Source: Streptomyces thinghirensis (GTDB lineage Bacteria > Actinomycetota > Actinomycetia > Streptomycetales > Streptomycetaceae). Taken from it: 64,000 nt of DNA. The notes below the pieces were generated by a model, which was given only the letters and a program-made list of their open reading frames with translations, was not told where the DNA came from and did not search any database. Position numbers and translations under genes: made by a program. Below, piece after piece: positions 10,003 through 43,509 of this stretch. Location: assembly GCA_021502835.1 (NCBI GenBank), contig JAKFGP010000058.1:248001-312000 (forward strand), written 5' to 3'. Every line of letters begins with the position of its first letter. Positions within the stretch are counted from its first letter, which is position 1.

Positions 10003-10014
10003 CGACCAACCGGC

Positions 10015-11453: not shown

Positions 11454-11591
11454 GGGTCGAGCCTATGACTTACCGACCGGTAGCGAATTGGCCACGCATG
11501 ACCACTCAACAACCTTTGAGTAAAGGGTTATTGACAAGTGTTGAATTGTGCGCCGAGCCGCTCCTATGAGCATTCGAATCGGCTCTCACCC

Positions 11592-11620
11592 TTGACAGGC
11601 GCCATGTTCAGGACAGAATC
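11592..11620 (+). promoter_or_regulatory. possible promoter for the 5'-nucleotidase gene
   Basis: A TTGACA at 11592-11597 is followed, after 17-18 bases, by AGAATC/GAATCT, a weak fit to the Streptomyces -10. It lies about 45 bases before the ATG at 11665. A second TTGACA at 11531 has no good -10 partner. The 11454-11664 gap also has to hold the divergent pyk promoter, which I could not locate. Confidence 0.35.
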
Positions 11621-11664
11621 TACGCGTCGCCAATGATGTTCACGGGTCACCGAGGAGAGTCAGC

Positions 11665-13479: not shown

Positions 13480-14913
13480 GTCCGTTCTGGTCGGGGCAGC
13501 CTCCAGATTCCGTCCGCCAGTGGGGTGAGCGTCCGGTGCCGGCGCGCGGCCGGGATCCGGGGCTGTCCGTGTTCGAGGCCGAAGGTGGTGAAGGCGGTGC
13601 GGCCGGGCAGCGGGTAGGGCTCCTGTCCGGTCAGGTCGTTGAGGATGGTCGCGCTGCGCCAGGCGGCGAGGCCGAGGTCGGGGGCGCCGACTCCGTGGGT
13701 GTGTGTTTCGGCGTTCTGGACGTAGACCCGGCCGGTGACGGAGGGGTCGAGGACGAGGCGGAAGCGTTCGTCGACGCGGGGGCGTTCGTGGCTGTCGCGC
13801 CGCATGTGGGGGTCGAGTCCGGCGAGGACGCGGCCGAGGGGGCGTTCTCGGTAGCCGGTGGCGAGGACGACGGCGCCGGTGGTGAGGCGGGTGCGGGTCT
13901 GCTGCTGGGCGTGTTCGAGGTGCAGTTCGACTTTGGTGGTGGCGATGCGGCCGGCGGTGCGGACGTGGACGCCGGGGGTGAGGACGGTGTCGGGCCAGCC
14001 GCCGTCGAGGGTGCGCCGGTAGAGCTCGTCGTGGATGGCGGCGGTGGTGTCGGCGTCGATGCCCTTGTGGAGTTGCCATTGGGAGGCGACGAGCCGGTCG
14101 CGGACGGTTCGGCCAGGCCGTGGAAGTAGCGGGTGTAGTCGGGGGTGAAGTGCTCCAGGCCGAGTTTGGAGTACTCCATGGGCGCGAAGGCCTCGGTGCG
14201 GCCGAGCCAGTGCAGTCTTTTCGCGGCCGGGGGCCGGTGGCGGAGCAGGTCGAGGAAGATCTCCGCGCCGGACTGGCCGGTGCCGATGACGGTGATGTGT
14301 TCGGCGGCGAGGAGTGTCTCGCGGTGGTCGAGGTAGTCGGCGGCATGGACGACGGGGACGCCGGGGGCGTCGACGAGGGGTCTGAGCGGGTCGGGGACGT
14401 AGGGCTCGGTGCCGACGCCGAGGACGACGTTGCGGGTGTGTGCGGCCGAGGGCCTCGGCCTCTCCGTCGGCGTCGAGTTGGGTGTAGTCGACTTCGAAGA
14501 GGTCGCGTTCGGGGTTCCAGCGGACGGCGTCGACCTGGTGGTGGAAGTGGAGGGTGGGGAGGTTTTCGGCGACCCAGCGGCAGTACGCGTCGTATTCGGC
14601 GCGCTGGATGTGGAAGCGTTCGGCGAAGTAGAAGGGGAAGAGGCGTTCTCGGGCCCGGAGGTGGTTGAGGAAGGTCCAGGGGCTGGCCGGGTCGGCGAGG
14701 GGTGACCAGGTCGGCGAGAAAGGGCACTTGGACGCGTGCGCCTCCGATGAGCAGGCCGGGGGTGCCAGTGGAACGCGGGGCGCTGGTCGTAGAAGACGGT
14801 GTCGAGGCCGGTGAGGGGTCGGCGAGCGCGGCGAGGGAGAGGTTGAAGGGGCCGATGCCGATGCCGACGAGGTCGCGGAGGGCGTCGGGCGCGGGGTGCG
14901 GGGTGGTGTTCAT
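13480..14913 (-). CDS. lysine/ornithine N-hydroxylase (SidA/IucD/PvdA family monooxygenase)
   Basis: Flavin monooxygenase that puts a hydroxyl on the terminal amine of lysine, ornithine or a diamine, the first step toward hydroxamate metal chelators. The start ATG at 14913 overlaps the stop of the upstream decarboxylase (ATGA). Visible motifs: FAD-binding GIGIGPFNLSLAAL, the substrate/FAD loop GLLIGGARVQVPFLADLVT, NADPH-binding GTGQSGAEIFLDLL, and ATGYRERPLG near the C-terminus. Frame changes lie near 14810, 14690, 14450 and 14070. The 3' end is unresolved: no minus-strand stop exists in any frame between 13480 and 13600, so either the gene overlaps the nucleotidase or an error hides the stop. 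It forms an operon with the decarboxylase. Confidence 0.82.
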
Positions 14914-24538: not shown

Positions 24539-25999
24539 TCAGACCGCGAGGGCGCGGTCGGTCGGGGGCGGATCGAGGCCGGCAGTTCGCTGGCTCCGGT
24601 CAGGAAGCTGTCGGCGCCGCGGGCAGCCGAGCGGCCCTCCGCGATCGCCCCAGACGATGAGCGACTGGCCGCGGCCGGCGTCACCGGCGACGAACACACC
24701 CGGCACGTTGGTCTGGAAGTCGGCGTCCGGGCGATGTTACCGCGTTCGTCGAGCTCCAGGCCGAACTGGTCGACCAGTCCGTTCTCCCGGTCGGTGCCGG
24801 TGAAGCCCATGGCGAGGTGACCAACTGGGCCGGGATCTTGCGCTCGGTGCCCGGCTTCAGGGTGAGCTTGCCGTCGATGAACTCGACCTCGCTCATGTGC
24901 AGCCACTGGACGTTGCCGTCCTGCGTCGCCCTCGAAGTGGGTGGTGGAGACGGCGTAGACCCGCTCGCCGCCCTCCTCGTGGGCCGAGGTGACCTTGTAG
25001 AGCATCGGGAAGGTCGGCCACGGCTGGCGCACCGCGTCCCGCTCCTCACCCGGCCGGGGCATGATCTCCAGCTGGGTGACGGAGGCCGCACCCTGGCGGT
25101 GGGCGGGTACCCACGCAGTCGACACCGGTGTCGCCGCCGCCGATGACGACGACGTGCTTGCCCTCGGCCGTGATCGGCGGGGCGACGTAGTCACCCTCCT
25201 GGACCTTGTTGGCCAGGGGCAGGTACTCCATGGCCTGGTAGATGCCCTTGAGTTCGCGGCCGGGGGCCGGCGAGGTCGCGGGCGGTGGTGGCGCCGGCGG
25301 CGGTGACCACGGCGTCGTAGCGCTTCTTGAGGTCGGTGGCCTGGGGTCGCGGCCGATCTCGACGCCGGTGCGGAAGCGGGTGCCCTCCGCGCGCATCTGC
25401 TCGATACGGCGGTTGATGTGCCGCTTCTCCATCTTGAACTCGGGGATGCCGTACCGGAGGAGACCTCCGATGCGGTCCGCGCGCTCGTAGACGGCGACCG
25501 TGTGGCCGGCCCGGGTCAGCTGCTGGGCGGCGGCGAGACCCGCCGGGCCCGAGCCGATGACGGCGACGGTCTTGCCGGACAGGCGCTCGGGGGATCTGCG
25601 GGGCGACGTCCCCGGTCTCCACGCCTTGTCGATGATCGAGACCTCGACGTTCTTGATGGTGACCGGCGGCTGGTTGATGCCGAGCACGCACGCGGACTCG
25701 CACGGAGCCGGGCACAGGCGGCCGGTGAACTCCGGGAAGTTGTTGGTGGCGTGCAGGCGCTCCTGCGCGGGCCGACCAGTCCTCGCGGTAGGCGTAGTCG
25801 TTCCACTCGGGGATCAGGTTCCCGAGCAGGCGCCGTTGTAGCAGAACGGGATGCCGCAGTCCATGCACCGGCTGGCCTGCTTGCTGATGATCGGCAGCAG
25901 GGAGCCGGGGGACGTAGACCTCGTTCCAGTCACTTGACGCGCTCCTCGACGGGGCGGGTCTTGGCGACCTCGCGTCCGTGGTTCGGGAAGCCCTTGAGA

Positions 26000-26007
<8 letters not shown>
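24539..26007 (-). CDS. gltD: glutamate synthase (NADPH) small subunit
   Basis: FAD/NADPH subunit of GOGAT, about 486 residues, which supplies electrons to GltB for converting 2-oxoglutarate and glutamine to two glutamates. The N-terminal cysteine cluster ([17 protein letters not shown] and [12 protein letters not shown]) binds 4Fe-4S; the FAD site is [17 protein letters not shown] and the NADPH site [16 protein letters not shown]. The end is hidden by a missing C near 24557: restoring it gives [10 protein letters not shown] and TGA at 24539-24541. Other frame changes lie near 25932, 25855, 25780, 25605, 25345, 25265, 25110, 24930 and 24820. Its ATG at 26007 overlaps the gltB stop by eight bases, so translation is coupled. 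Confidence 0.93.
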
Positions 26008-30609
<4,602 letters not shown>

Positions 30610-30979
30610 CGGCTCTCCGTCGTCGTCATCTGGCATGTGCAAGTGCCGAGGGACGACGTTGGCCCTCTGCTTGAGTGCAAAATTTCGTGCAGGTTACATG
30701 ATGGAGCGGTTCTCGGGAACCGGGATAATCCGTTCCAACATGCGGACACCGAGGGGGTTCGCGGCGGGGTGCCGCACCCGGCGGTGGAAGCTATGGAGAC
30801 CGCAGCGGACAGATCGATGTCCGTCGGCCCGAGGCACGGAGGGAGCTTCGTCGCTCACTTCGCCGATGCGCGGCGGGCCTCATTGCCCACAGCGCTTACG
30901 GCTCATGCCCGGGGATCACACACTCGAAACCAGCGAGTAACGGCTACTTATGCGGTCCGACGCATGAGTTCGAGCCGGG
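30610..30979. other. gltB upstream region
   Basis: This stretch has no supported gene. It should hold the gltB promoter and leader, since gltB reads leftward from 30609 and the VIT1-like gene ends at 30980. It is less GC-rich than the flanking genes, with an AAAATTT patch at about 30680. A candidate GlnR half-site is listed separately. Confidence 0.5.
30682..30697 (-). promoter_or_regulatory. candidate GlnR half-site upstream of gltB
   Basis: On the minus strand the sequence GTAAC-CTGCAC-GAAAT matches nine of ten positions of the actinobacterial GlnR a/b-box unit (GTnAC-n6-GAAAC). It lies 73-88 bases before the gltB ATG. A clear second unit at the usual spacing is not seen, so the site may be weak or accidental. 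Nitrogen control of gltBD makes it plausible. Confidence 0.4.
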
Positions 30980-31712
30980 CTATCCTACGGCCGTTCCGAA
31001 CAGGCTGCCCAGGACGTACGTCACACCGGCCGCCGCACCACCGAGGGCGAGCTGCCGCAGCCCGCTGTACCACCAGCTGCGCGCCGTCACCTTGGCCACC
31101 ACCGCGCCACACAGGAACAGCCCGGCCAGCGCGAGCACCACCAGGGGCCACAGCGCACTGGCGCCGAGCAGGAACGGCAGAACGGGGGAGCAGGGCGCCC
31201 AGCGCGAACGAACCGAACGACGACACGGCCGCGACCGACGGCGAGGGCAGGTCGCCGGGGTCGATGCCCAGCTCCTCACGGGCGTGTATCTCCAGGGCCT
31301 GCTCCGGGTCACGGGACGGCTGCCGGGCCACCTCGCGCGCGAGGCCCGGCTCCACGCCCCGCGCCTCGTAGAGCGCGGCCAGCTCGGCCTCCTCGTCCGC
31401 CGGGTGCTTCCTCAGCTCACGGCGCTCCACGTCCAGCTCGGCCTCGACGAGCTCGCGCTGCGAGGCGACGGAGGTGTATTCGCCGGCGGCCATGGAGAAG
31501 GCGCCGGCGGCGAGCTCGGCGAGCCCGCTGATCACCACGGTCTGCTGACTCGCCGTGCCGCCCGCGACACCGGTCATCAGGGCGAGGTTGGAGACCAGTC
31601 CGTCCATCGCGCCGAAGACGGCGGGGCGCAGCCAGCCGCCGTTCACGTCGCGGTGGGTGTGGTTGTCGCGGTGCGCCTCGTGCAGCGGCGCCTCGGTCTC
31701 GATGATGGCCAT
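30980..31712 (-). CDS. VIT1/CCC1-family membrane transporter
   Basis: Integral membrane protein of about 243 residues related to yeast CCC1 and plant VIT1 iron/manganese transporters. The start AIIETEAPLHEAHRDNHTHRD is cytoplasmic. TM1 carries the family motif FGAMDGLVSNLALMTGVAGG (Asp and Met line the metal path), and TM2 has GLAELAAGAFSMAAGEY. A charged cytoplasmic domain of about 90 residues (VEAELDVERRELRKHPADEE) follows, then three more hydrophobic segments ending VTYVLGSLFGTAVG. One frame change lies near 31185. It would move divalent metal out of the cytoplasm; the exact metal is not shown by sequence. It diverges from the ADP-ribosylglycohydrolase cluster. Confidence 0.88.
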
Positions 31713-31941
31713 GAGAGTTCCCCCGGGGAAGCTAGTTTGGACCTGGTCTACTTCTCGACAACAACCAATCTACGCCGATCATTTCCGCCTCGCCAGCAGG
31801 AAGGCTGGGCTTACCTGCGGTTTACCCTTGCGCGCTCATCCGTGATCTTGACCGCACAAATGTCGACCGGGTGACGCTGAGCCCTGCGAGGCTGCGCAGC
31901 ACACCCACCGGGGACAGATGCGCAAAGGGAGGAGCGGCCGC
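31713..31941. other. divergent promoter region between the VIT1-like gene and the ARH cluster
   Basis: No gene is supported here. The region is relatively AT-rich near 31740-31790 and must contain promoters for both divergent units. A TTGACC near 31849 has no convincing -10 partner. The GGAGGAG at 31929-31935 is the ribosome-binding site of the first hydrolase gene. Confidence 0.4.
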
Positions 31942-33365
31942 ATGGCATCCACCGCCTGCATTCCCCGGTCCCCGCGCCCGGTGACGCCGTCGGACTCCGC
32001 GAACGGGCCCGGGGCGCGCTGCTGGACTGGCCGTCGGCGACGCCCTCGGGGCGCCGGCCGAGAACATGAAGCCCTCCGAGATCCGCGCCCGCTGGGGCCG
32101 CATCACGGGATACGTGGCCAGGAAGCCGGCCGGCACCGACGACACCGAGTACGCGATCTTCTCGGGCCTGCTGCTGGCCCGGTACGGCTCCGCGCTCACC
32201 CCCGCCCATGTCGAGACGGCCTGGCACGAGTGGATCGCGGACTGGGAGGAGGGCCCCCTTCCCGGGGCGCGGGCTTCAGCGAACGCGGCACCCTGGAGAA
32301 CCTGCGCCGGGGCCTCGCCGCCCCCATCTCCGCGCAGCACCGCCACGCCTGGAGCGACGGACTGGCCATGCGGGCCGCGCCCTACGGCGTCTTCGCGGCG
32401 GGCCGTCCCGCCGAGGCGGCCCGGCTGGTGGCGATCGACGGCTCGGTCAGCCACGAGGGCGAGGGCATCTACGGCGGCCAGGCGGTGGCGGCGGGAGTCG
32501 CGGCGGCGATGGCGGGGGCACCGACCGTCGCGGTCGTCGCCTCCGCCCTGGCGGTCGTACCGGACGACTCCTGGACGGCCCGCTGCCTGCGCCGCGCGAT
32601 GACGGCGGCCCACCGCGGCGAACGCGCCGTCCGGTCCGCGGTGGTCATCGGCGGCTACCCCTGGACCGACCTGGCGCCCGAGGCGGTCGCCCTCGCCTTC
32701 GGCGCGTACGCGGCGGCCGACGGCGACTTCACGGACGCGGTGCTGACGGCCGTCAGCATGGGCCGCGACGCCGACACCACGGCAGCGGTGGCCGGCGCCC
32801 TGGCCGGCGCGACCCGGGGGCCGCCGCCATCCCCGCCGAGTGGGCATCGGCCATCGGCCCGGCCCCCGGCAGCTGCCTGCCGGCGATGGCCGGACACCAC
32901 GTCCTGGAGGTGGCGGACCTGCTGACGCGGGGGGCGGAGAAGGGGCAGCGCGGTGCGGAGGTGGCGCAGCGCGGTGCGGAGAAGGCAGCGCGGTGCGGAG
33001 GCAGCCCAGCGCGGTGCGGAGGCAGCACAGCGCGGTGCGGAGGTGGCGCAGCGCGGTGCGGAGGTGGCGCAGCGCGGTGCGGAGGCGGGGACGCGGAGGA
33101 CGGAACCGGCGACGCGGAGTGGGGGGGACGGGGGTGCCGAGCGCGGGACCGGCGACGCGGGGTGCGGAGACGAAGGCACCGAGCCCAGAACCCGCAACCC
33201 GAAGCGCCGACACGAAGACGCCGAGCCCAGAACCCGCAACCCGAAGCGCCGACACGAAGGCACCGAGGCCAGAACCCGCAACCCGAAGCGCCGACACGAA
33301 GACGCCGAGCCCAAGAACCCGCAACGCGGACGGACCGCGACGCGCCCACGGGGGTGGCGCCGTGA
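31942..33365 (+). CDS. ADP-ribosylglycohydrolase-family protein 1, with repetitive C-terminal tail
   Basis: First of four consecutive ARH/DraG-fold genes. Family enzymes use two metal ions to remove ADP-ribose from proteins or nucleic acids. Three metal motifs are intact: GLAVGDALGAPAE, TDDTEYAIF, and SMGRDADTTAAVAGALAGA (Asp-x-Asp-Thr). The fold ends near residue 330 (MAGHHVLEVADLL). After it comes a tail of about 140 residues from 21-bp then 42-bp tandem repeats, open in more than one frame. GGAGGAG precedes the ATG at 31942. Frame changes lie near 32025, 32265, 32815 and 32985. The TGA at 33363-33365 would overlap the next GTG (GTGA), but the tail frame is not certain. Confidence 0.78.
32934..33090 (+). 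repeat. 21-bp tandem repeat, about seven units, inside ARH gene 1
   Basis: The core CAGCGCGGTGCGGA recurs at 32946, 32967, 32986, 33007, 33028, 33049 and 33070. Spacing is 21 bases except one 19-base step, which may be a two-base error. In one frame this encodes the heptad AQRGAEV/AQRGAEA, which would form an amphipathic, partly charged helix. Confidence 0.85.
33172..33333 (+). repeat. 42-bp tandem repeat, nearly four units, at the end of ARH gene 1
   Basis: Units begin at 33172, 33214, 33256 and 33298 with a regular 42-base period. They alternate between GAAGGCACCGAG and GAAGACGCCGAG openings, so the higher-order unit is 84 bases. One frame reads EDAEPRTRNPKRRH; another reads RAQNPQPEAPTRRR. 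All three frames are open across the block, and the true one cannot be chosen from this sequence. Confidence 0.85.
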
Positions 33366-34670
33366 GCAGGGCACGTCCCGGCGGTGAGGAACCCGCCACC
33401 ACGGCGTACGTCGCACCGCCCGGCGCGCCGGGAGGACCCCGCGCCCACCGGGAGCGGGCACCAGGCCGGGTCCCGAGCACGCCGCCCCGCCCCGCACCGC
33501 GCCGTGGGCCGAAGCCACCGCGCCCGGGGCCGCCGCCCCGCCCCGCCCGGCACCGCGACCCGACCGCATCGAGGGTCTCCTCCTCGGGCTCGCCGCGGGA
33601 GACGCCGCCGGCTGGCCCGCCGCCCGGCACCGGGCCGCCCGGATGCCGAGTGGACGCGCCGCCTCACCCGCGAGCTGGACACCTTCGCCGAGCAGAACGC
33701 GACCACCACCCTCCCCGTGCCCATCGCCCTGAACCAGCCCCCCGAGCCGCTACGCCTCGGCCCGTCCGACGACGCCGAGTGGGCGGCGTTCGCGGCGGAG
33801 GCGGTGCTGCGGGCCGGGGACGACAGCGCGCTCGGGGACCTGAGCCGGGAGCGCCGGATGCGGGCGGCGATCGACCTGACCTGGAACGCCGTCGCCGGTG
33901 AAGTGGCGCGGCGACGGAACGCGCCCCGGAGGCCGAGTCGGCGGTACTGCCGCTGCGGGCCCGCATCTCGGTACGGGCCGGGCTCGGCAACCTCGCCACC
34001 GGCCTGCGCCCGCCCGCCACCGGCCACGACAACCCGCACTACTTCGACGACGCCGCCTGCGTCCGGCCTGCGTCCTCGCCGTCGCCCACCCCGGCGACCC
34101 GCGACCCGCCGCCGACCTCGCCGAGTTCGACGCCCGCTACACCCAGGACGGCGACGGCGTGCACGGCGCATCGGGCCATGGCGGCGGCCGTGGCGTGCGC
34201 CCTCGACGGCGCGGACGTGCGCGCATGCCGTGGACGCCGCGCTCGCCGAGCTGCCCGGAGAGACGGAGATCGGCCGCAACGCCCGCCAGGCACTGGCCCT
34301 GGCGGCGGACGCCGAGAGCACCTTCGCGCTCGTCCCGCTGCTGGAGCACCAGATCGTCGACCACGTCTACAGCTAGCGGCATCGCCGCCGCCGAGACGGT
34401 CCCGGTCGCCCTCGCCCTGGCCACCGCCGCCCGGGGCCGCATCGCGGAGGCCGTACCGGCGGCGGCCTGTCTGCTCGAGGGTCGCGGACTCCGCTCCGCG
34501 CTGGCCGGCGCCCCTCACCGGCGCGCTGAGCGGCGGCACGTCGATCCCCGCGTCCTGGCGGGGAGACCGCTGCCGCACCCTCCCCGGCTGCGTACTCGCC
34601 CCGTCTCACCGGCACCGACCTGGTCGAACTCGCCGGACTCCTGCATCGCTACGCAACCGTCCCCACGTGA
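33362..34670 (+). CDS. ADP-ribosylglycohydrolase-family protein 2, motif-degenerate
   Basis: Second ARH-fold protein, about 435 residues. The GTG at 33362 gives a Pro/Arg-rich N-terminus (VSRARPGGEEPATTAYVAP) before the fold. Motif I is LLLGLAAGDAAGW (GDAAG rather than GDxLG), motif II is PSDDAEWAAF, and the third motif reads SRVADSAPALAGAL, where Val replaces the first metal-binding Asp of DxDS/T. It may therefore bind one metal poorly or act as a partner. The middle contains DDAACVRACVLAVAHPGD and ELPGETEIGRNARQAL. Frame changes lie near 33595, 33640, 33915, 34225, 34372, 34480 and 34510. An inserted G at about 34375 makes a false TAG. Confidence 0.7.
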
Positions 34671-34712
34671 AGGACGCGAAGGACGGAAAGGACAAGAAGG
34701 GCGACACACGAC

Positions 34713-35922
34713 ATGAGGACACCTCGGCACAGCGGACAACGGCACAGCGGACAACGGCACGCCGACCCTGGAGGAGCGCATCACCGGCGCCCTCGTCGGC
34801 GCGGCCGTCGGCGACGCGCTCGGCGGCCCGGTCGAGGGCTACCTCCCGAGCAGATCCTCGAACGCCATGGCGGCCGAGTCCACGGCGTCGTCGGCCCCTG
34901 GAACGGCGACGCCTGGCGCACCGCCCGCCCCATCGCCCCGTACCACAAGGGCGACGGCCACGTCACCGACGACACCCCTGATGACCCACGCGCTGGTCGG
35001 GTGTACGGCACGGTCCGCGACCACCTCGACGCCTACTCGGTCGCCGAGCACCTGGTTCCGGACCTGATGACGAACCCGCGCTGGATCCCGGAGCTGGAGG
35101 CCGAGGCGCTCCGCTCAGCGGGTCTTCCTGGCGGAGAAGTGGCTCGCCGCCGCCAGGATCCACTACGGCCACGTGGACCCCGCGAGGCGGGCACCGGCAA
35201 CATCGTCAACTCGGTGCCGCGATGTACATGGCCCCGGTCGGCCTGGTCAACGCGGCCCACCCGGCGGGCGCCTACGCCGAGGCGCTGGACGTCGCCGGCG
35301 CACACCAGTCGTCGTACGGCCTGAGGCGGCCGGTGTCCTCGCGCGGCGGTGGCCGCGGTGCGCGTGGGGCGACGCCGGACTCGGTGGTGTCGGCCTGTCT
35401 GTCCCTGGCGAAGGACGGCACCCGGGCGGCGATCGAGGCGGTCTGCGAAGTGGCCTCCCGGTACTCGGACTTCGAGTCGGCGCTGCGCCGCTGCGGGAGG
35501 CGGTGGCGCCCTACGACACGGTGGGCCCCGACTACCGCGCGCCCTCACTGGCCGCACGCCGCCCAGCCCGTCCCGCGTGCACGCGATCGAGGAACTGCCC
35601 GTCGCCCCCGGCATGTTGCTGGTCTCCGGCGGCGACTACCGGCACGCGGTCCTCGGCGCGGTGAACTACGGCCGGGACTGCGACTCCATCGCCACGATGG
35701 GGGCGCGCTGGCCGGTGCGCTGGGTTCACCGGTCCCGGAGGACTGGGCGAAGACGGTCGCGGAGGCGAGCCGTCTGGACCCTGTGGGAACCGGCCGCGAC
35801 GCCACCGCGGCCCGGAGGTGTTCGAGCGCGACGTGGCGCGACGCCGCCTCCACGAGCGGGCGTTCACCGCGATCGGAGGCGCGGGATGCTCCGACCGACC
35901 TGGGTCCAGCCCGAGGACCTGA
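34713..35922 (+). CDS. ADP-ribosylglycohydrolase-family protein 3
   Basis: Third ARH-fold protein, about 400 residues, with all metal motifs: GALVGAAVGDALGGPVEGY, HVTDDTLMTHAL, and NYGRDCDSIATMGGALAGAL. Other conserved parts are GPWNGDAWR, REAGTGNIVNCGAAM (Gly/Asn loop) and LLVSGGDYRHAVLGA. The ATG at 34713 is followed by a direct 15-base repeat (GGCACAGCGGACAAC twice) that encodes a polar leader. Frame changes lie near 34765, 34845, 34975, 35125, 35215, 35320, 35490, 35570, 35700 and 35790. The end is probably the TGA at 35920-35922, which would overlap gene 4 by about 37 bases. It is the best candidate for a fully active hydrolase. Confidence 0.75.
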
Positions 35923-37235
35923 TCGGCCACGAGCTTCGCCAGGCGGCGCAGGACGGCCGCGACCCGTCGGCGATCGCGGCTCGCTGGAGAGCGGCGGGCG
36001 GCCGCGAGGCCCCGGCCCGAGCGGGCACGTCCGCCCAGCCGGCCTCCTCCGCCTCCGCCTGCTGGCGGAAGACCTGCTGGACGAACTGTCCGGCCTGCCG
36101 AGCCCGCTGGCGGACCAGGAACCGACCGAACTGGACCGGATCAAGGCCCTGTCCCCGACTGGCCCGCCCCCCGACCCGAAGCCGTGTCCCCCGACCGTCT
36201 GGAAGCGGCCTGGCTCGGCCGAGCCGCCGGCTGCCTCCTCGGCAAGCCCGTCGAGAAGCTCCCCCTGACCGGCATCCGCCTGCTCGCCGAGGCCGCCGGC
36301 AACTGGCCCCCGACCACCTACTTCACCGCCCGGGCCTCCCCGCGGACCTCACCGCGACGTACCCCTGGAACCGCCGCTCCGCGCCGACCTCCTCGCCGAG
36401 AACATCGACGGCATGCCCGAGGACGACGACCTCAACTACCCCTGCTGGGCCTCCTGCTCCTCCAACGCCACGGCAGGACCTTCACCACCGCCGACGTCGC
36501 CCGCGTCTGGCTCGACGAGCCGCCCGCAGGCCGCACCTTCACCGCCGAACGCCTCGCCTACCGCAATCTCCTCACCGGCATCGAACCCCCGCACACCGCC
36601 CGCCACCGCAACCCCTTCCGCGAGTGGATCGGCGCCCTGATCCGCGCCGACGTGCACGGCTGGACCAACCCCGGCGACCCGGCCGCCGCCGCCGGGCAGG
36701 CGCACCGCGACGCGACCTCACCCACACCGCCAACGGCGTCTACGCGGCGATGTTCGCGGCGGCCGTCATCGCCACCGCCGCCACCGGCACCCACGACGTC
36801 CACGCCTGTCTGCGCACCGGCCTCACGGTCGTACCGCCCGGCTCCCGCCTCGCCGAAGCCGTCCGCCACGGCGTCCAACTCGCCGAAACCCACGCCGACT
36901 TCGACGGCGTCGTGGACGCGCTCCACGCCCGCCACTCCCCACCCACCACTGGGTCCACGCCGTCCCCAACACCGCCCTGCTCGCGGCCGCCCTCACCCAC
37001 GCGGACGGCGACTTCACCGGATCGGTCTCCCGTGCCGTGTCGGGAGGCTGGGACACCGACTCAACGGCGCCACCGCCGGCAGCGTCGCCGGTCTCCTCGC
37101 CGGTTTTCCCGCCGCCCTGCCCGAGCACTGGACGGCCCCGCTGAAGAACCGCCTGGCCACCTCGGTGGGCGACTTCGACGGCACCGGCTTCGACACCCTC
37201 GCCCACCACCCCACAGGGAGGCCACCCGCCCATGA
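35886..37235 (+). CDS. ADP-ribosylglycohydrolase-family protein 4, N-terminally extended
   Basis: Fourth ARH-fold protein, about 450 residues. GGAGG lies before the ATG at 35886 (LRPTWVQPEDLIGHELRQA). About 100 residues precede the fold and are rich in Arg, Ala and Leu, perhaps a binding helix bundle. Motif I is altered to WLGRAAGCLLGKPVEKL (no Asp), motif II is MPEDDDLNYPLLGL, and motif III is GGWDTDSNGATAGSVAGLLAG, with both Asp present. It shows TANGVYAAMFAAAVIATA and RHSPTHHWVHAVPNTALLAAAL. Frame changes are near 36040, 36165, 36340, 36400, 36455, 36720, 36955 and 37065. The TGA at 37233-37235 overlaps the next ATG. Confidence 0.72.
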   Translation: MLRPTWVQPEDLIGHELRQAAQDGRDPSAIAARWRAAGGREAPARAGTSAQPASSASACWRKTCWTNCPACRARWRTRNRPNWTGSRPCPRLARPPTRSRVPRPSGSGLARPSRRLPPRQARREAPPDRHPPARRGRRQLAPDHLLHRPGLPADLTATYPWNRRSAPTSSPRTSTACPRTTTSTTPAGPPAPPTPRQDLHHRRRRPRLARRAARRPHLHRRTPRLPQSPHRHRTPAHRPPPQPLPRVDRRPDPRRRARLDQPRRPGRRRRAGAPRRDLTHTANGVYAAMFAAAVIATAATGTHDVHACLRTGLTVVPPGSRLAEAVRHGVQLAETHADFDGVVDALHARHSPPTTGSTPSPTPPCSRPPSPTRTATSPDRSPVPCREAGTPTQRRHRRQRRRSPRRFSRRPARALDGPAEEPPGHLGGRLRRHRLRHPRPPPHREATRP

Positions 37236-38458
37236 CCGCGCCCCCGCCCGTCGTGCCCCCGCCCCCGCCCTCGTCCACGCCCCGCTGACCGGCCTGCGCG
37301 TCCTCGACCTCGCCACCCTTCGCGGGCCCGCTCGCGGCCACCATGCTCGGCGACTTCGGTGCCGAGGTCGTCAAGGTGGAGCACCCCCGACCGGCCCGAC
37401 CCTCCCGGGGGCCACGGCCCGTCCAAGGACGGCATCGGCCTGTGGTGGAAGCTGCTGGGCCGCAACAAGCGCACGATCACCCTGGACCTGTCCAAGCCCG
37501 CCGGCCGCACCACCCTGCTGCGCCTCACGCCACCGCGGACGTCGTCATCGAGAACTTCCGCCCCGGCACCCTGGAGAAGTGGGACCTGGGCTGGGACGAG
37601 CTGTCCGCCGTCAACCCGCGCCTGGTCCTCACCCGGGTCACCGGCTTCGGCCAGTTCGGCCCGTACGCGCGCCGCCCCGGCTTTCGGCACGCTCGCCGAG
37701 GCCAGAGCGGCTTCGCCGCGATGACCGGCGAACCGGACGCGCCCCCGACGCTGCCGCCGTTCGGCCTCGCGGACTCGATCGCCGCCCTGGCGACGTCGTA
37801 CGCCGTGATGACCGCGCTCGCCGCGCGGGACCGCACCGGCGAGGGACAGGTCGTCGACATGGCGATCATCGAGCCGATCCCTGACCGTGCTGGGCCCGCA
37901 GCCGACCTGGTACGACCAGCTCGGCCACGTCCAGCCGCGCACCGGCAACCGCTCCCAGAACAACGCCCCGCGCAACACCTACCGCACCGCCGACGGCACC
38001 TGGGTCGCCGTCTCCACCTCGGCCCAGTCGGTCGCCGAGCGCGTGATGCGCCTGGTGGGCCGCCCGGAGCTGATCGACGAGCCCTGGTTCGGGTCCGGCG
38101 CCGAGCGGGCCCGGCACTCCGACGTGCTCGACGCGGCGGTCGGCGACTGGATCGCCCGGCACAGCCGCGCCGACGTCCTCGCCGCCTTCGAGAAGGCCGA
38201 GGCCGCGGTCGCCCCGATCCAGGACGTGCGGGACGTGATGGCCGACCCGCAGTACCAGGCCCTCGACACGGTCACCACCGTCGACGATCCCGAGCTGGGT
38301 CCACTGCGTATGCAGAACGTCCTCTTCCGGCTCTCCGCGACCCCGGCGCGATCCGCTGGGCGGGCCGCCCGCACGGCGCGGACACCGAGGAGGTGCTGAC
38401 CGAGCTGGGCCTGACCCCGGCGGACGTGAAGGAGCTGCGCGAGGAGGGCGTCGTATGA
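37232..38458 (+). CDS. CaiB/BaiF family (class III) CoA-transferase
   Basis: Cytoplasmic enzyme of about 405 residues that moves CoA between a carboxylic acid and an acyl-CoA. It has the class III pattern: [65 protein letters not shown] (region just before the catalytic Asp), LTRVTGFGQFGPYARRPGFG, FGLADSIAAL and DRTGEGQVVDMAI. The C-terminus reads LGLTPADVKELREEGVV. The N-terminus has a Pro run (about 12 prolines). Frame changes lie near 37265, 37318, 37395, 37525, 37690 and 38345. It begins inside the stop of ARH gene 4 and its own stop overlaps the next start (ATGA), so it belongs to the same operon. Confidence 0.88.
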
Positions 38459-39275
38459 CCACACCCCCACTGACCTGGCTGTACGCCCCGGGGGACCGGC
38501 CCCGGGTGGTCGCCAAGGCGCTGGCCGCCGGTGCCGACGTCGTGGTGGTCGACCTGGAGGACGCGGTCGCCCCGGACCGCAAGGAGTACGCCCGCGAGGC
38601 CACCGCCGAGCTGCTCACCGAGCCACAGCCGGTGCCGGTCCACGTCCGCGTCAACGCCCTGGACGGGCCGTTCGCCGCGGCGGACCTGGCGGCGCTGGCC
38701 GCGCTGCCGGGACTGGCCGGGCTGCGCCTGCCCAAGGTGACGTCCCCGGAGCAGATCACCGGCGTCGCGGCGGCGACCGGCGGGCCACCCCTGTACGCGC
38801 TCCTGGAGACGGCCCTGGCCGTGGAGCGGGCGTACCGGATCGCAGCGGCCCACCCGTCTGCGCGGCATCGCCTCGGCGAGGCCGACCTCCGGGCCGACCT
38901 GGGCGTACGCGGTGACGCGGGCCTGGACTGGTCCTGCTCGCGCGTGGTCGTGGCCGCGCGGGCGGCGGGGCTGGCGCCGCCGTCGCAGACGGTGCACCCG
39001 GACACCCGGGACCTGGAGGGTCTGGCCGCTTCCTGCGCCCACGGCCGGGCCCTGGGCTTTCTCGGCCGGGCCGCGATCCACCCCGCCAGCTGCCGATCAT
39101 CGAGCGGGCGTACCTGCCGACCGAACGGGAGCTGGAGGAGGCGGAGACGATCGTCAAGGCGGCCACCGCGCAGCCGGGCGCGCTGGCGCTGCCGGACGGG
39201 CGGTTCGTCGACGCGGCGGTGGTGGCGACGGCCCAGCGGACCCTGTCGCTGGCCCGGCGGCCCGTCCTGTCCTGA
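38455..39275 (+). CDS. CitE/HpcH family acyl-CoA lyase
   Basis: TIM-barrel lyase of about 273 residues related to citrate lyase beta, malyl-CoA and citramalyl-CoA lyases, which split a 3-hydroxyacyl-CoA with a magnesium ion. Motifs: LYAPGDRPRVVAKALAAGAD, VVVVDLEDAVAPDRKE (the DLEDAV hallmark), VHVRVNALDG, LRLPKVTSPEQI, LLETALAVERAYRIAA and GRAAIHPAQLPII. Arg, Glu and Asp positions typical of the active site are present. A frame change near 39090 interrupts the last third. It starts in the CoA-transferase stop and ends 20 bases before a strong terminator. Working after a CoA-transferase would suit activation then cleavage of a dicarboxylic or hydroxy acid; the substrate is unknown. Confidence 0.85.
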
Positions 39276-39294
39276 CATGGGCGTCCCGATACAG

Positions 39295-39330
39295 GCCGAG
39301 GGCGCCCGGAGAGTTCCGGGCGCCCTCGGC
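39295..39330. terminator. strong bidirectional terminator after the ARH/CoA operon
   Basis: A perfect 16-bp stem (GCCGAGGGCGCCCGGA / TCCGGGCGCCCTCGGC) with a GAGT tetraloop lies between the convergent CitE-like gene and lgt. It is the strongest hairpin I found in the window. Confidence 0.9.
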
Positions 39331-39349
39331 GACGTGCGGCGGCGGCCCG

Positions 39350-40370
39350 TCAGCCCTTCTTGGCCGAGTCGGCCCCGTCCTTCACGTCCCTCACGCTCTT
39401 CTCGTCCTCCACGGCACCGTCGTCACCGGCGTCCTTGTCGCCCCCGGCGCCCTCGGAATCCTCGGAGCCCTTGGAGTCCCCAGATGCCTTGGCGCCGGCG
39501 TCCGTGTCCCCCTTCGCGCCGTCTCCGGCGTCACCGTCCGAGGACTCCGCCGCGCCCGGCTCGACCACGGCCTTCCCGGGCCCGGCCGCATCCGCGCCGA
39601 GAGCACCATGTACACCACGGCCAGCAGGAACACGAAGAGCGCGGTCCAGTTGTTCAGCCGCAGACCCAGGATGTGGTGGGCGTCGTCGACGCGCATGTAC
39701 TCGATCCAGAACCGGCCCGCGCAGTACGCGGCGACGTACAGCGCGAACGCCCGCCCGTGGCCCAGGTTGAAGCGGCGGTCGGCCCAGATGACGAGCAGGG
39801 CCACGCCGATGCACCACATCGACTCGTACAGGAACGTCGGGTGGTACGTGCCGGGCACCCGTCCGTCGGCCGACGAGGTGATCTCCACGGCCCACGGCAG
39901 GTCGGTGGCCTTGCCGTACAGCTCCTGGTTGAACCAGTTGCCCCAGCGGCCGATGGCCTGGGCGAGGGCGATGCCGGGGGCGACGGCGTCGGCGTAGGCG
40001 GGCATCGGGACGCCCCGGCGGCGGGCGCCGATCCACGCGCCCACCGCGCCGAACGCGATCGCGCCCCAGATGCCGAGGCCGCCCTCCCAGATCTTGAAGG
40101 CGTCGACCCAGTCACGGCCCTCGCTGAAGTACAGCTGGTAGTCCAGTGATCACGTGGTAGAGCCGGCCGCCGATCAGGCCGAAGGGAACGGCCCAGACCG
40201 CGATGTCGGCCACCGTGCCGGGCCGCCCGCCTCGGGCGACCCAGCGCTTGTTGCCGAGCCAGACGGGCAACGAAGACGCCGATGATGATGCAGAACGCGT
40301 AGCCGCGCAGCTGGATGGGACCGAGGTGCAGCACCCCGCTGGACGGGCTGGGAATGAAGGCAAGTTCCAT
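39350..40370 (-). CDS. lgt: prolipoprotein diacylglyceryl transferase with acidic C-terminal tail
   Basis: Integral membrane enzyme that attaches diacylglycerol from phosphatidylglycerol to the lipobox cysteine of prolipoproteins. It opens MELAFIPSPSSGVLHLG and has the family helices LRGYAFCIIIGVFVAVWL, RGGRPGTVADIAVWAVPFGLIGGRLYHVIT, the signature AQAIGRWGNWFNQELYG with the catalytic-site arginine and asparagine, and PTFLYESMW. The catalytic core of about 260 residues is followed by a tail of about 80 residues rich in Asp, Glu, Gly, Ala and Ser, ending VKDGADSAKKG. Frame changes lie near 40270, 40145 and 39600. It is downstream of the DsbA-like gene and may depend on its own promoter past the hairpin at 40448. 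Confidence 0.93.
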
Positions 40371-40447
40371 GGCAGGGTCGACGCTACCGTGTCGGACGGT
40401 ACCCGCGACGGGCAGCCCGGCTACGGGTCCGTAACGGGCGGACGGAA

Positions 40448-40477
40448 GAGCACCGCGCGGACACCGCGCGGGTGCTC
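40448..40477. terminator. hairpin between the DsbA-like gene and lgt
   Basis: GAGCACCGCGCGG pairs with CCGCGCGGGTGCTC through a 13-bp stem with one bulged G and a short ACA-type loop. It starts 18 bases after the DsbA-like stop on the minus strand, so it likely ends that transcript and separates it from lgt. Confidence 0.65.
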
Positions 40478-40494
40478 CGCCGCCCGCCGCCGCG

Positions 40495-41267
40495 TTACTT
40501 GTTGGCGTCCTGCACCAGCTGCTTCAGCTTCGCCGGTGTCATGGGGCGGTCCTGGTAGATGTTCTTGCCGTCCAGCAGCACGGTCGGCGTGCCGCTGAAG
40601 CCGCCGGTGCGGAAGGCCTCGTTGGACTTCTCCACCCAGCTGTTGTGCTTGCCGCCCCTCGACGCACTCCTGGAAGAGCGCGGTGTCGAGGCCGTCGACC
40701 TTGCCCGCCAGGTCGATCAGCTTGTTCTCGTCGGCGAACGCGTCGTCGGTCTCCGCCGGCTGGTTGGTGAACAGCACGTCGTGGTACGGCGTGAACTTGC
40801 CGCGTCCTGGGCGCAGGCGGCGGCGTTGGCCGACTTGCGGGAGCCGGTGCCGCCCATGTTCCCGTCGATGATCGTCGCCAGGTGGTACTCGACCTTGAGC
40901 TGCCCCGCTTCGGTGAGCTCGTGGATCGTGTCGCGGTACGCCAGCTCGAAGGCCTTGCAGGCCGGGCAGCGGAAGTCCTCCCAGATGACGAGCGTCGACT
41001 TGGCGCTCTCCTCGCCGACGGGGATCGCGAGGCTGTCCTTGCCCTGCGCGCCCGAGGGCGCCACGATCGGGCCGGCCGACTCGCTGCCGTCGTCCTTGCC
41101 CGCGTTGGCGGCGACCACGCCGATCACCGCCGCGAGGCCCAGGACGCAGACCACGCTCGCCCCGACGATCAGCGCGCGCCGGCGCTTGTCCTTGGACTTC
41201 TGCTTCTCGCGCTCGGCCGCCAGCTTCTGACGGGCGGTGCGCTTTCCTCTCGGTTCTTCTCGCTCAC
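40495..41267 (-). CDS. membrane-anchored DsbA-like thiol oxidoreductase
   Basis: Exported thioredoxin-fold protein of about 258 residues. A very basic cytoplasmic N-terminus (SEKNREGKRTARQKLAAERE) precedes one transmembrane helix (ALIVGASVVCVLGLAAVIGVV), then a Gly/Ser linker and a DsbA_4/thioredoxin-4 domain with the active site FRCPACKAF (CPAC). The fold continues YRDTIHELTEAGQLKVEYH, NAAACAQDAGKF and GTPTVLLDGK (cis-proline region). It should make or exchange disulfides outside the membrane. The GTG at 41267 starts SEKNREGK. Frame changes are near 41250, 40800 and 40660. A terminator separates it from trpA. Confidence 0.88.
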
Positions 41268-41281
41268 ACCCCGCAGAACGA

Positions 41282-41310
41282 ACCGGGGAGGCGCAGCGCG
41301 CCTCCCCGGT
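41282..41310. terminator. terminator after trpA
   Basis: A perfect 12-bp stem (ACCGGGGAGGCG / CGCCTCCCCGGT) with a five-base loop lies 44 bases after the trpA stop on the minus strand. It likely ends the trpC-trpM-trpB-trpA transcript. Confidence 0.8.
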
Positions 41311-41353
41311 CCCAGGTCCACCCGTACGAGGGACCCGCGTCACGTGCCTGTCG

Positions 41354-42171
41354 TCACGCCTGTCCGCGCACGCCCTTCGCCAGGTCGGCGGCGAGCGTGC
41401 GGACACCCTCCAGGCCGGCCGCGTCGTCGGGGGCGTCGAGCATGCGCTTGACGAACGCCGAGCCGACGATCACGCCGTCGGCGAAGCCGGCCACCTCGGC
41501 GGCCTGCGCGGCGTTGGAGACGCCGAGCCCGACGCAGACGGGGATGCCGGTGGTGGCGCGGGTGCGTCGTACCAGGTCCTCGGCCTGCGCGCCGACCGAC
41601 TCGCGGGTGCCGGTGACGCCCATGAGGGAGGCGGCGTAGACGAAGCCGCTGCCGGCCGCGGTGATCTCGGCGAGCCGCGCGTCCTTGCTGCTGGGCGCGA
41701 CGACGAAGACGGTGGCGAGTCCGTGCTTGTCGGCGTGCTCCCGCCACAGCGCCGACTCCTGGACGGGCAGGTCGGGCAGGATGCACCCGGCGCCGCCCGC
41801 CTCGGCCAGCTCGGCGGTGAAGCGCTCGACGCCGTAGCGGTCGATGGGATTCCAGTACGTCATGACGAGGATCGGCTTGCCGGTGGCCGCGTGTGCCTCC
41901 CGGACGGTGCGCATCACGTCGGCGATGCGCACGCCAGCCGCGCAGGGCGATGTCGTCGGCGGTCTGGATGACCGGGCCGTCGAGGACGGGGTCGCTAGTG
42001 CGGCAGGCCCACCTCGACGACGTCGGCGCCGCCGTCCAGCGCGGCCTTGATCGCCGCGATGCCGCCGTCCACGGTGGGGAACCCGGCCGGGAGGTAGGCG
42101 ATGAGGGCGGAGCGGCCCTCGGCCTTCGCGGCGGCGAGCGTGTCGTTCAGCAGCTGCACGTTCCCGCTCAC
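41354..42171 (-). CDS. trpA: tryptophan synthase alpha chain
   Basis: TIM-barrel subunit of about 271 residues that splits indole-3-glycerol phosphate and channels indole to TrpB. Catalytic Glu53 ([13 protein letters not shown]) and Asp64 (VLDGPVIQ) are present, as are the [15 protein letters not shown] loop and the phosphate site [25 protein letters not shown]. One frame change lies near 41940. The GTG at 42171 overlaps the trpB stop (GTGA), so the two chains are made in step. Confidence 0.95.
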
Positions 42172-43453
42172 TTGGCGTCCCCCTCGATCTCGGCGGTGCC
42201 GGCCTCGTCGGCAGCGACCTCGGCGTCGGTGTCGTAGAGCCCGAAGTAGCGGGCGGCGGTGTCCATGTCCTTGTCGCCGCGGCCGGACAGGTTGACGACG
42301 ATCAGCCCGTCCTTGCCCAGCTCCTTGCCGACCTCGATGGCGCCGGCCAGCGCGTGGGCGCTCTCGATGGCCGGGATGATGCCCTCGGTGCGCGACAGCA
42401 GGCGCAGCGCCTGCATGGCGGCGTCGTCGGTGACCGCGCGGTACTCGCCGCGGCCGGAGTCCCTTGAGGTAGCTGTGCTCGGGACCGATGCCGGGGTAGT
42501 CGAGCCCCGCCGAGATCGAGTACGGCTCGGTGATCTGGCCCTCGTCGTCCTGGAGGACGTAGGACCGGGAGCCGTGCAGGATGCCGGGCTCGCCCGCGGA
42601 CAGGGTGGCCGCGTGCTCGCCGCTCTCGATGCCGTGCCCGGCGGGCTCGCAGCCGATGAGGCGGACGTCCGCGTCGGGGATGAAGGCGTGGAAGAGGCCG
42701 ATGGCGTTGGAGCCGCCGCCGACGCAGGCGATCGCCGCGTCGGGGAGGCGTCCGGCCTGTTCCAGGAGCTGGCGGCGGGCCTCGACGCCGATCACGCGGT
42801 GGAAGTCAGCGCACCATCGCCGGGAAGGGGTGGGGTCCGGCGACGGTGCCGAACAGATAGTGGGTGCGGTCGACGTTGGCGACCCAGTCGCGGAAGGCCT
42901 CGTTGATCGCGTCCTTGAGCGTGCGGCTGCCGGACTTCACGGCGATGACCTCGGCGCCGAGCATGCGCATGCGGGCCACGTTGAGGGCCTGGCGGCGGGT
43001 GTCGATCTCGCCCATGTAGATGGTGCAGTCGAGCCCGAAGAGGGCGCAGGCCGTCGCCGTCGCCACGCCGTGCTGGCCGGCGCCGGTCTCCGCGATGACG
43101 CGGGTCTTGCCCATGCGCTTGGTCAGCAGGGCCTGCCCGAGCACGTTGTTGATCTTGTGGGAGCCGGTGTGGTTGAGGTCCTCGCGCTTGAGGAAGACAC
43201 GGGCGCCGCCCGCTTCCGCGGCGAAACGGGGCACCTCGGTGAGCGAGGACGGGCGGCCCGTGTAGTGGACCAGCAGGTCGTCGAGCTCACGGGCGAACTC
43301 GGGGTCCGACTTGGCCTTGTCGTACTCGACGGCCACCTCGTCGACCGCCGCGACGAGGGCCTCGGGGATGAACTTGCCGCCGTACGCCCCGAAGTAGCCT
43401 TCGGGACTGGGGTTTTGACCCTCGGGGTCGGGGATGAAGAAGTTGCTGGGCAT
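42168..43453 (-). CDS. trpB: tryptophan synthase beta chain
   Basis: PLP enzyme of about 428 residues that joins indole and serine to make tryptophan. It opens [21 protein letters not shown] and shows the Schiff-base Lys100 in [30 protein letters not shown], the PLP phosphate loop [10 protein letters not shown], and [16 protein letters not shown]. Frame changes near 42805 and 42465 break the gene but leave no gap in the protein. The short C-terminal extension ([21 protein letters not shown]) is acidic. It lies between trpM and trpA. Confidence 0.95.
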
Positions 43454-43509
43454 GCGTGAACCTCACGGTGAGTGTCTGGTTTGGGCACATTCGCCGTGGG
43501 GCGGGGGAG

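What the first reader, a model, noticed from the sequence alone, without database searches (positions are those of the whole stretch)
31942..39275. Four tandem ADP-ribosylglycohydrolase-fold genes coupled to a CoA-transferase and a CitE-like lyase
Seen: four consecutive plus-strand genes (31942-33365, 33362-34670, 34713-35922, 35886-37235) each carry GDxLG-like, DD-containing and DxDS/T-like motifs of the ARH/DraG family, then a CaiB/BaiF CoA-transferase and a CitE/HpcH lyase. All junctions except that between hydrolases 2 and 3 overlap, and a 16-bp terminator closes the unit. Known: ARH enzymes remove ADP-ribose; CoA-transferase plus CitE activates and cleaves small acids. No ADP-ribosyltransferase, macrodomain or toxin is near. 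Inference: the set may be a hydrolase complex of diverged paralogues working on an N- or O-glycoside whose acid product is handled as a CoA ester, rather than only reversing protein ADP-ribosylation. This is the best candidate for an undescribed system in the window.
Basis: partly seen in the sequence, partly recalled or inferred. Interest (0 to 1): 0.78.

Follow-up and report, generated by a model that had tools for sequence, protein, structure and literature searches.

The report
Streptomyces operon for eating ribose conjugates
Four neighbouring Streptomyces genes usually labelled as erasers of the protein tag ADP-ribose look instead like parts of a widespread sugar-eating gene set that takes in, and splits ribose off, a still unknown molecule.

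Summary
The six genes are real and recur together, but in this window all are broken by small indels, as are the flanking VIT, lgt, dsbA, trpA and trpB: I read an error-prone assembly. One motif claim fails: hydrolase 2 lacks the first Asp of DxDS in 95 of 95 relatives read. In Streptomyces the set is usually longer: 35 of 49 fetched loci have a ribokinase between hydrolase 4 and the CoA-transferase, missing here. In 16 of 16 Jiangella-family loci it is the tail of one co-directional run: LacI, two permeases, solute-binding protein, ARH1-4, ribokinase, (amylase-like protein), CoA-transferase, CitE. Some Streptosporangiaceae and Streptomyces have it too; Micromonospora has it without ARH1-ARH2. 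This is the anatomy of carbohydrate uptake, not of ADP-ribosylation reversal. Best reading: ARH-fold enzymes act as ribosidases on an imported ribose conjugate; ribokinase takes the ribose, CoA-transferase plus CitE-like lyase an acid aglycone. The substrate is unknown and nothing has been assayed; the CoA genes are absent from eight Nonomuraea clusters. By recalled position the S. coelicolor counterparts are SCO2028-2031, in print as uncharacterised DraG/ARH homologues. Nine searches of the held papers found no description of this operon.

The parts
31942..32996 (+). ARH1 (ADP-ribosylglycohydrolase fold); 4 frameshifts against L011
   Evidence: orthologue L011:5749-6810 is PF03747 at 204 bits; metal motifs intact in relatives
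32927..33325 (.). two tandem-repeat arrays (21-bp x 7.7 at 32927-33085; 42-bp x 3.7 at 33170-33325) between the ARH1 and ARH2 domains
33423..34674 (+). ARH2, ARH fold; in relatives the first Asp of the third metal motif is lost; 10 frameshifts against L011
34713..35922 (+). ARH3; metal motifs intact in relatives; 15 frameshifts against L011
35886..37235 (+). ARH4, about 100-aa N-terminal extension plus ARH domain; DD and DTDS intact in relatives, GC[LV]LG instead of GDxLG; 9 frameshifts
37232..38458 (+). CaiB/BaiF CoA-transferase (family III); 5 frameshifts
   Evidence: aligned part 37273-38455
38455..39275 (+). CitE/HpcH-like acyl-CoA lyase; 1 frameshift against L011
39295..39330 (.). perfect inverted repeat, 16-nt arms, 4-nt loop, between convergent CitE and lgt

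Best explanation
This is the enzyme part of a carbohydrate-uptake operon for a ribose-bearing conjugate. In the full form a LacI regulator and a CUT1-type ABC importer bring the conjugate in. ARH-fold enzymes (ARH1, ARH3, ARH4 with complete or near-complete metal motifs; ARH2 a diverged partner of ARH1) split off ribose. Ribokinase phosphorylates the ribose. The released acid is loaded on CoA by the CaiB-type transferase and cleaved by the CitE-like lyase to acetyl-CoA plus an oxo product. In this window the importer, regulator and ribokinase are not at the locus. Shown: gene content, order, recurrence, ribokinase class, motif state. Inferred: that the ARH enzymes act on a riboside, that ARH2 is non-catalytic, and the whole CoA step. 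Unknown: the substrate.
For: One-strand run LacI-PermA-PermB-SBP-ARH1-2-3-4-RbsK-(GHF)-CaiB in 16 of 16 Jiangella-family loci (CitE in 15, GHF in 12) and LacI to ARH4 in 7 of 7 f19 loci, of which 4 have RbsK and 3 CaiB-CitE; in named genomes 45 of 80 PermA loci have ARH beside it; in Streptomyces L096, L136, L153, L167. The kinase passes the D-ribokinase equivalog cut-off of 299.65 bits in 3 of 4 tested (314.7, 307.7, 303.9; side-locus L039 274.7). The regulator's best NCBIfam match is RbsR (175.5 bits, below its cut-off of 531). SBP_bac_1 and BPD_transp_1 domains. GHF models as an amylase-like barrel at low confidence. ARH2 and ARH3 are kept or lost together: 73 both, 2 ARH2 only, 0 ARH3 only, 26 neither of 101 Streptomyces. 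Mismatches to the nearest relative fall on third codon positions in ARH3, CaiB and CitE (26 of 34, 10 of 15, 17 of 23), which suggests selection. Streptomyces L171 keeps importer and ribokinase together between VIT and lgt.
Against: Eight Nonomuraea clusters end after RbsK, and L056 and L059 have neither RbsK, CaiB nor CitE next to the ARH genes, so neither step is universal. L171 keeps importer and ribokinase with no ARH at all, so those two may serve free ribose. Ribokinase is absent from 10 VIT-side Streptomyces loci with CaiB (one of them, L019, with an N gap nearby) and from this window. The PermA orthologue tracks ARH2 only weakly in Streptomyces: 54 of 75 ARH2+ against 13 of 26 ARH2- genomes, p = 0.054. 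No shared operator-like dyad upstream of PermA and ARH1. CaiB and CitE miss every curated equivalog cut-off listed. The ARH1 fragment shows no third-position bias (1 of 6). No assay exists.
Confidence: 0.57

Rival explanations
1. The four proteins remove ADP-ribose from macromolecules, as in their published listing among DraG/ARH homologues of Streptomyces.
For: Single-sequence PDB matches of ARH1 and ARH3 are DraG, MJ1187 and relatives and their metal motifs are intact. S. coelicolor DraG-like proteins including SCO2028-2030 were read in print as a sign of a lively ADP-ribosylation metabolism (PMC5087735, passages).
Against: Transporter, LacI and ribokinase in the same run; no ADP-ribosyltransferase seen among the neighbours that I annotated (no dedicated search was run); SCO2028 and SCO2030 showed no detectable activity on U-alpha-ADPr (PMC13036486, passages; that one linkage only); the DraG equivalog cut-off is not reached (81.7 and 48.0 against 337.05).
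Confidence: 0.1
2. The set salvages a nucleotide-sugar or nucleoside-like metabolite (ADP-ribose, NAD fragments, ADP-glucose, modified nucleosides), like E. coli yegTUV.
For: yegT-yegU-yegV is transporter + ARH + sugar kinase, and its regulator is reported to sense ADP-glucose (PMC10819704, passages). A staphylococcal triplet of ARH, nucleobase-type permease and ribokinase is in print (PMC3637587, passages).
Against: The importer here has CUT1-type sugar-transporter domains (class name recalled); an amylase-like protein and CoA genes do not fit. In the tree YegU falls on a long branch outside ARH1, ARH2 and ARH4 (placement unsure).
Confidence: 0.2
3. CaiB-CitE is a separate acid-catabolism module that travels with the ARH operon without sharing its substrate.
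For: Missing in eight Nonomuraea clusters and in L056, L058 and L059; placed upstream of LacI in L062.
Against: Next to the ARH/RbsK run in Streptomyces, Jiangella, Microbispora, Micromonospora and Oerskovia, and next to ARH3-ARH4-GHF in Tessaracoccus.
Confidence: 0.2
4. The window genes are decaying pseudogenes, so the locus is dead in this strain.
For: 44 frameshifts in six genes against 11 in five flanking genes, by hand 6.3 against 2.6 per kb of coding; ARH1 fragment without third-position bias (1 of 6).
Against: trpA, trpB and lgt carry frameshifts too; third-position bias in ARH3, CaiB and CitE; the nearest relative has open ARH3, CaiB and CitE frames.
Confidence: 0.06

Closest known systems
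S. coelicolor DraG/ARH homologues SCO2028-2031 (PMC9411070, PMC5087735, PMC13036486; passages only)
   Same: Presumably the orthologous locus (that these tags lie beside gltB and trp and equal ARH1-4 is recalled, not tested); four consecutive tags of the same family
   Different: In the passages read they are uncharacterised ADP-ribosyl hydrolase homologues; ribokinase, CoA-transferase, CitE and a transporter are not mentioned there
E. coli yegTUV (PMC10819704 passages)
   Same: Transporter + ARH-family protein + sugar kinase in one operon
   Different: One ARH, a predicted nucleoside:H+ symporter, GntR-type regulator, no CoA genes
Staphylococcal ARH-permease-ribokinase triplet, SERP2216-2218 (PMC3637587 passages)
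   Same: ARH next to ribokinase and an importer
   Different: One ARH, cytosine/purine-type permease, no CoA genes in the passage
Bacteroides thetaiotaomicron ribose utilisation (rus) locus (recalled only; the paper was not held)
   Same: As recalled: ribokinases, importer and an ARH-family protein in a ribose-scavenging locus
   Different: As recalled: SusC/D-type uptake and a nucleoside hydrolase; no CoA genes
Itaconate/citramalate route with a RipC/Ccl lyase (pathway recalled)
   Same: CoA-transferase next to a RipC/Ccl-like lyase (CitE best NCBIfam match RipC_Ccl, 150.2 bits)
   Different: No hydratase seen beside it here; the RipC_Ccl cut-off of 375 is not reached

Membership tests
PF03747 ADP-ribosylglycohydrolase family | curated Pfam score (26.2 bits) | tested here: met
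   L011 ARH1-3: 204, 119, 168 bits; L026 ARH1-4: 179, 97, 168, 173 bits. Orthologues tested, not the broken window frames
PF03747 family (ARH1, ARH3, ARH4) | Asp motifs DD and DxDS/T (metal-ligand role recalled) | tested here: met
   Both Asp of DxD in 97 of 97, 107 of 107 and 102 of 102 aligned rows; DD in at least 97 of 98, 108 of 108 and 103 of 103
PF03747 family (ARH2) | both Asp of DxDS/T | tested here: not met
   first Asp is V/L/Q/T/N/K/A in 95 of 95; the Glu of GDxLGxxxE is kept in 3 of 95
DraG equivalog TIGR02662 | curated score 337.05 | tested here: not met
   ARH1 81.7, ARH3 48.0; ARH2 and ARH4 not listed
ADP-ribosylarginine hydrolase Tri1 NF041672 | curated score 490 | tested here: not met
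   ARH1 49.5, ARH2 22.3, ARH3 47.2; ARH4 not listed
D-ribokinase TIGR02152 (relatives' clusters) | curated score 299.65 | tested here: met
   L014 314.7, L026 307.7, L102 303.9; the side-locus kinase of L039, 274.7, does not reach it
Ribose repressor RbsR NF007743 (L026 LacI protein) | curated score 531 | tested here: not met
   175.5 bits, its best match
RipC/Ccl lyase NF038242 | curated score 375 | tested here: not met
   150.2
CaiB equivalogs and subfamilies of NCBIfam | curated scores 413-750 | tested here: not met
   best 245.6 against 750; seven families listed, none reached
Ribosidase | release of ribose from a riboside | not testable with these tools
   needs an assay
ADP-ribosyl hydrolase | release of ADP-ribose from a modified target | not testable with these tools
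   one negative in print on U-alpha-ADPr for SCO2028 and SCO2030 (passages)

The most novel reading that the evidence does not exclude
ARH-fold proteins form an unrecognised group of metal-dependent glycoside hydrolases in Actinomycetes: three active ribosidases and one re-purposed partner take apart a ribosylated hydroxy-acid that is imported by an ABC system, fed to ribokinase and finished by a CoA-transferase/CitE route. Half of the supposed ADP-ribosylation erasers of S. coelicolor would then be sugar enzymes.
Probability: 0.3. Interest if true: 0.82.

Novelty: new variant of a known kind. Interest (0 to 1): 0.62.

Why it matters
Streptomyces holds many ARH homologues but few known transferases, which is called surprising in print (PMC5087735, passages). 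If four of the eight DraG/ARH homologues listed for S. coelicolor (PMC9411070, passage) belong to a sugar-uptake operon, that mismatch partly dissolves and the reading of these genes as ADP-ribosylation enzymes needs correction. It would also give the ARH fold a catabolic role, point to an unknown ribose-bearing nutrient shared by large-genome actinomycetes and one 1.3-Mb, 45% GC genome, and make the question directly testable through the solute-binding protein.

Tried and rejected
Window's own genome: not held. A protein search failed on the machine; I went on with alignment searches.

Regulon link: 47 VIT-ARH1 intergenic stretches were compared with 20 stretches upstream of PermA for shared dyads; the best shared one is in 6 of 47 and 2 of 20, so none stands out.

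Co-occurrence of PermA (313 bits or more) with ARH2 in Streptomyces is weak: 54 of 75 against 13 of 26, p = 0.054; with ARH3 53 of 73 against 14 of 28, p = 0.037. By coordinates five of the 54 lie within 4 kb of ARH2 (G647, G670, G680, G691, G704). I do not claim that the unlinked copy is the dedicated importer.

GHF structure: mean pLDDT 52; its amylase-like Foldseek hits are a hint only. ARH2 model: pTM 0.85, TM-score about 0.6 to ARH3, DraG and MJ1187, which confirms the fold, not catalysis.

Four-way complex: no tool for joint prediction. The tree has ARH1-ARH2 as sisters (99/95) and ARH3 and ARH4 as separate lineages, against one recent four-fold duplication; the tool warns of long branches. 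Pseudogene reading: held unlikely.

A protein search with ARH3 scored 7998 candidates, 7020 at 1e-40; all 120 listed carry only the family name, 'hypothetical protein' or no name, so it added prevalence, not function.

Rows dropped or soft: one search left out nine named loci as the same genomes as unnamed ones, and matches of 600 bases or less; 35 of 80 loci have no ARH. One search's sets were typed from the listings; G001, G011 and G679 count as ARH2+ on single weak hits (127-137 bits; the last two may be ARH1). In one search some of the 63 also rest on weak or partial matches (e.g. G404, G152, G213). One search's 49 loci come from 48 genomes and were chosen on ARH hits. One reference (GHF of L027) was cut in the wrong frame and matched only itself; L027's GHF rests.

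One search also added L171 and three Nonomuraea loci; confidence went from 0.58 to 0.57 for L171.
Full report
Check of the observation. The window is Streptomyces-like, GC 72%; the species is not known to me. Its own assembly is not held; the nearest held genome G001 (locus L019) shares 45% of sampled 31-letter words and is 93-97% identical over the three long aligned blocks, with two N gaps in the cluster. A frameshift-tolerant alignment to intact L011 proteins finds all six genes in order at 77-86% aligned identity, with 4, 10, 15, 9, 5 and 1 frameshifts; VIT, lgt, dsbA, trpA and part of trpB have 1, 3, 3, 2 and 2. Mismatches to L019 fall on third codon positions in ARH3 (26 of 34), CaiB (10 of 15), CitE (17 of 23), TrpA (28 of 32), VIT (14 of 18) and lgt (14 of 23), but not in the ARH1 fragment (1 of 6) or dsbA (3 of 8). 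I read this as functional genes in a poor assembly. Two tandem arrays lie between the ARH1 and ARH2 domains, so ARH1 does not reach 33365. The inverted repeat behind CitE is exact.

What the proteins are. ARH1-4 orthologues are PF03747 members. ARH1 and ARH3 find DraG and MJ1187 in the PDB; single-sequence searches with ARH2 and ARH4 find nothing, their profiles find ARH-fold entries at E about 1e-5. The ARH2 model has the ARH fold (pTM 0.85). Over relatives, ARH1, ARH3 and ARH4 keep DD and DxD with one exception at most per column; ARH4 has Cys for the Asp of GDxLG in 103 of 104; ARH2 lacks the first Asp of DxDS in 95 of 95. CaiB is CoA_transf_3 (418 bits) and CitE HpcH_HpaI (127 bits); neither reaches a curated NCBIfam cut-off. 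In the five PDB alignments of L026 CaiB shown, the query has Glu in a column where 4ed9 and YfdE have Asp, 10uh and 9fn0_B Glu and 9br7 Ser; that this is the catalytic column is recalled.

Recurrence. Of 101 Streptomyces genomes, 75 have an ARH2 match at 1e-30, 72 of them above 400 bits, and 73 have ARH3; 73 have both, 2 ARH2 only, 26 neither. Across 394 class genomes 63 match ARH2, 30 of them Streptomyces and 33 of four other families, a few on weak or partial matches; across 198 phylum genomes 7, all Streptomyces. Of 49 Streptomyces loci fetched on ARH hits, 45 have all six genes and 35 also ribokinase: 34 read VIT'-ARH1-ARH2-ARH3-ARH4-RbsK-CaiB-CitE-lgt', 9 the same without RbsK, and one (L096) carries LacI and the ABC genes too. 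The window is of the type without RbsK: references for RbsK, PermA, PermB, SBP, LacI and GHF give no match at 1e-5 in its 64 kb. One genome (G013) has ARH1 and ARH2-ARH3 in two places (L022, L020).

The full run. In all 16 f21 loci the order is LacI-PermA-PermB-SBP-ARH1-ARH2-ARH3-ARH4-RbsK-(GHF)-CaiB, with GHF in 12 and CitE in 15; in the stretch of L049 CaiB is the last gene seen. In seven f19 loci LacI to ARH4 is complete, with RbsK in 4 and CaiB-CitE in 3. Of 80 named loci found through PermA, 45 have ARH genes beside it; within the fetched stretches 34 of these 45 show RbsK, 27 CaiB and 18 CitE. Micromonospora, Asanoa, Oerskovia and Tessaracoccus have ARH3-ARH4, GHF and CaiB but no ARH1-ARH2 in the stretch; Tessaracoccus has no RbsK there. 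Streptomyces L136 and L153 have LacI and the importer between VIT and ARH1. Eight Nonomuraea loci have unrelated genes after RbsK. L029, L052, L054 and L055 have LacI-SBP-PermA-PermB divergent from ARH1-ARH2 only. L171 has importer and RbsK between VIT and lgt with no ARH. So ARH1-ARH2 and ARH3-ARH4 behave as two modules; the tree places ARH1 and ARH2 as sisters and ARH3 and ARH4 as separate lineages.

Function. Three cluster ribokinases reach the curated D-ribokinase cut-off. The LacI protein's best match is RbsR, under its cut-off. SBP and permeases have sugar-ABC domains (the class name CUT1 is recalled). GHF has an FGE domain and a low-confidence amylase-like barrel. A Jiangella side locus joins ARH1-ARH2, an ARH4-like protein and two kinases with a further ARH-family protein (47.5 bits), a second ABC set whose best matches are ribose, arabinose and allose systems under their cut-offs, and an amylase-domain protein. 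Together these say carbohydrate uptake, with ribose as the most likely sugar released. The acid step is inferred from CaiB plus CitE; no hydratase was seen, so a 3-hydroxy-acid aglycone such as malate, citramalate or 3-hydroxy-3-methylglutarate is my guess.

Literature. Nine searches of the held library gave no account of this operon; subscription papers and preprints are not held. SCO2028-2031 are listed as uncharacterised DraG/ARH homologues (PMC9411070), SCO2028-2030 as DraG-like hydrolases (PMC5087735); SCO2028 and SCO2030 showed no detectable activity on U-alpha-ADPr (PMC13036486). All were read as passages only. That these are the orthologues rests on recalled locus position.

Limits. 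No assay; substrate unknown; the transporter link in Streptomyces is weak; no operator found; ribokinase and CaiB-CitE are each missing in some lineages; co-transcription was not tested.

Noticed in passing
window 25191-43459: The ORF list shows gltB in pieces over several frames, and lgt, dsbA, trpA and trpB have indels against L011: the region looks like an error-prone assembly
   Followed up: partly
window 32927-33085 and 33170-33325: Two tandem arrays (21-bp and 42/84-bp units) between the ARH1 and ARH2 domains; natural or assembly-made is unclear
   Followed up: partly
window 31712-31942 and the VIT-ARH1 gap of relatives: By eye, recurring blocks (AAGGCTnnGCTAACCTGC; ATGTCGACCGGGTGA) in the gap shared with the divergent VIT gene; the first resembles an IdeR/DmdR iron box (recalled)
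   Followed up: partly
L022 and L020 (G013): Cluster split: ARH1 stays beside VIT, ARH2-ARH3 lie elsewhere in the chromosome
   Followed up: no
L171 (Streptomyces sp. WMMB 322), 9851-14199: Importer and ribokinase remain between VIT and lgt with no ARH, CaiB or CitE: a stripped form of the operon
   Followed up: partly
L027:2648-5638: Ribokinase and the FGE-bearing GHF protein form one 996-aa open frame
   Followed up: no
L039:10577-18522: A 651-aa ARH-family protein with (by eye) a signal peptide near a second sugar ABC transporter and an amylase-domain protein
   Followed up: partly
transporter-only Streptomyces loci, e.g. L147, L168, L176: PermA-PermB-SBP stands apart from ARH genes in many Streptomyces; PermA is also in 13 of 26 genomes without ARH2; its cargo there is unexplained
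   Followed up: partly
L063 (G405): A 1.3-Mb, 45% GC actinomycete keeps LacI-ABC-ARH3-ARH1-ARH2-CaiB-CitE, a large investment for so small a genome
   Followed up: no
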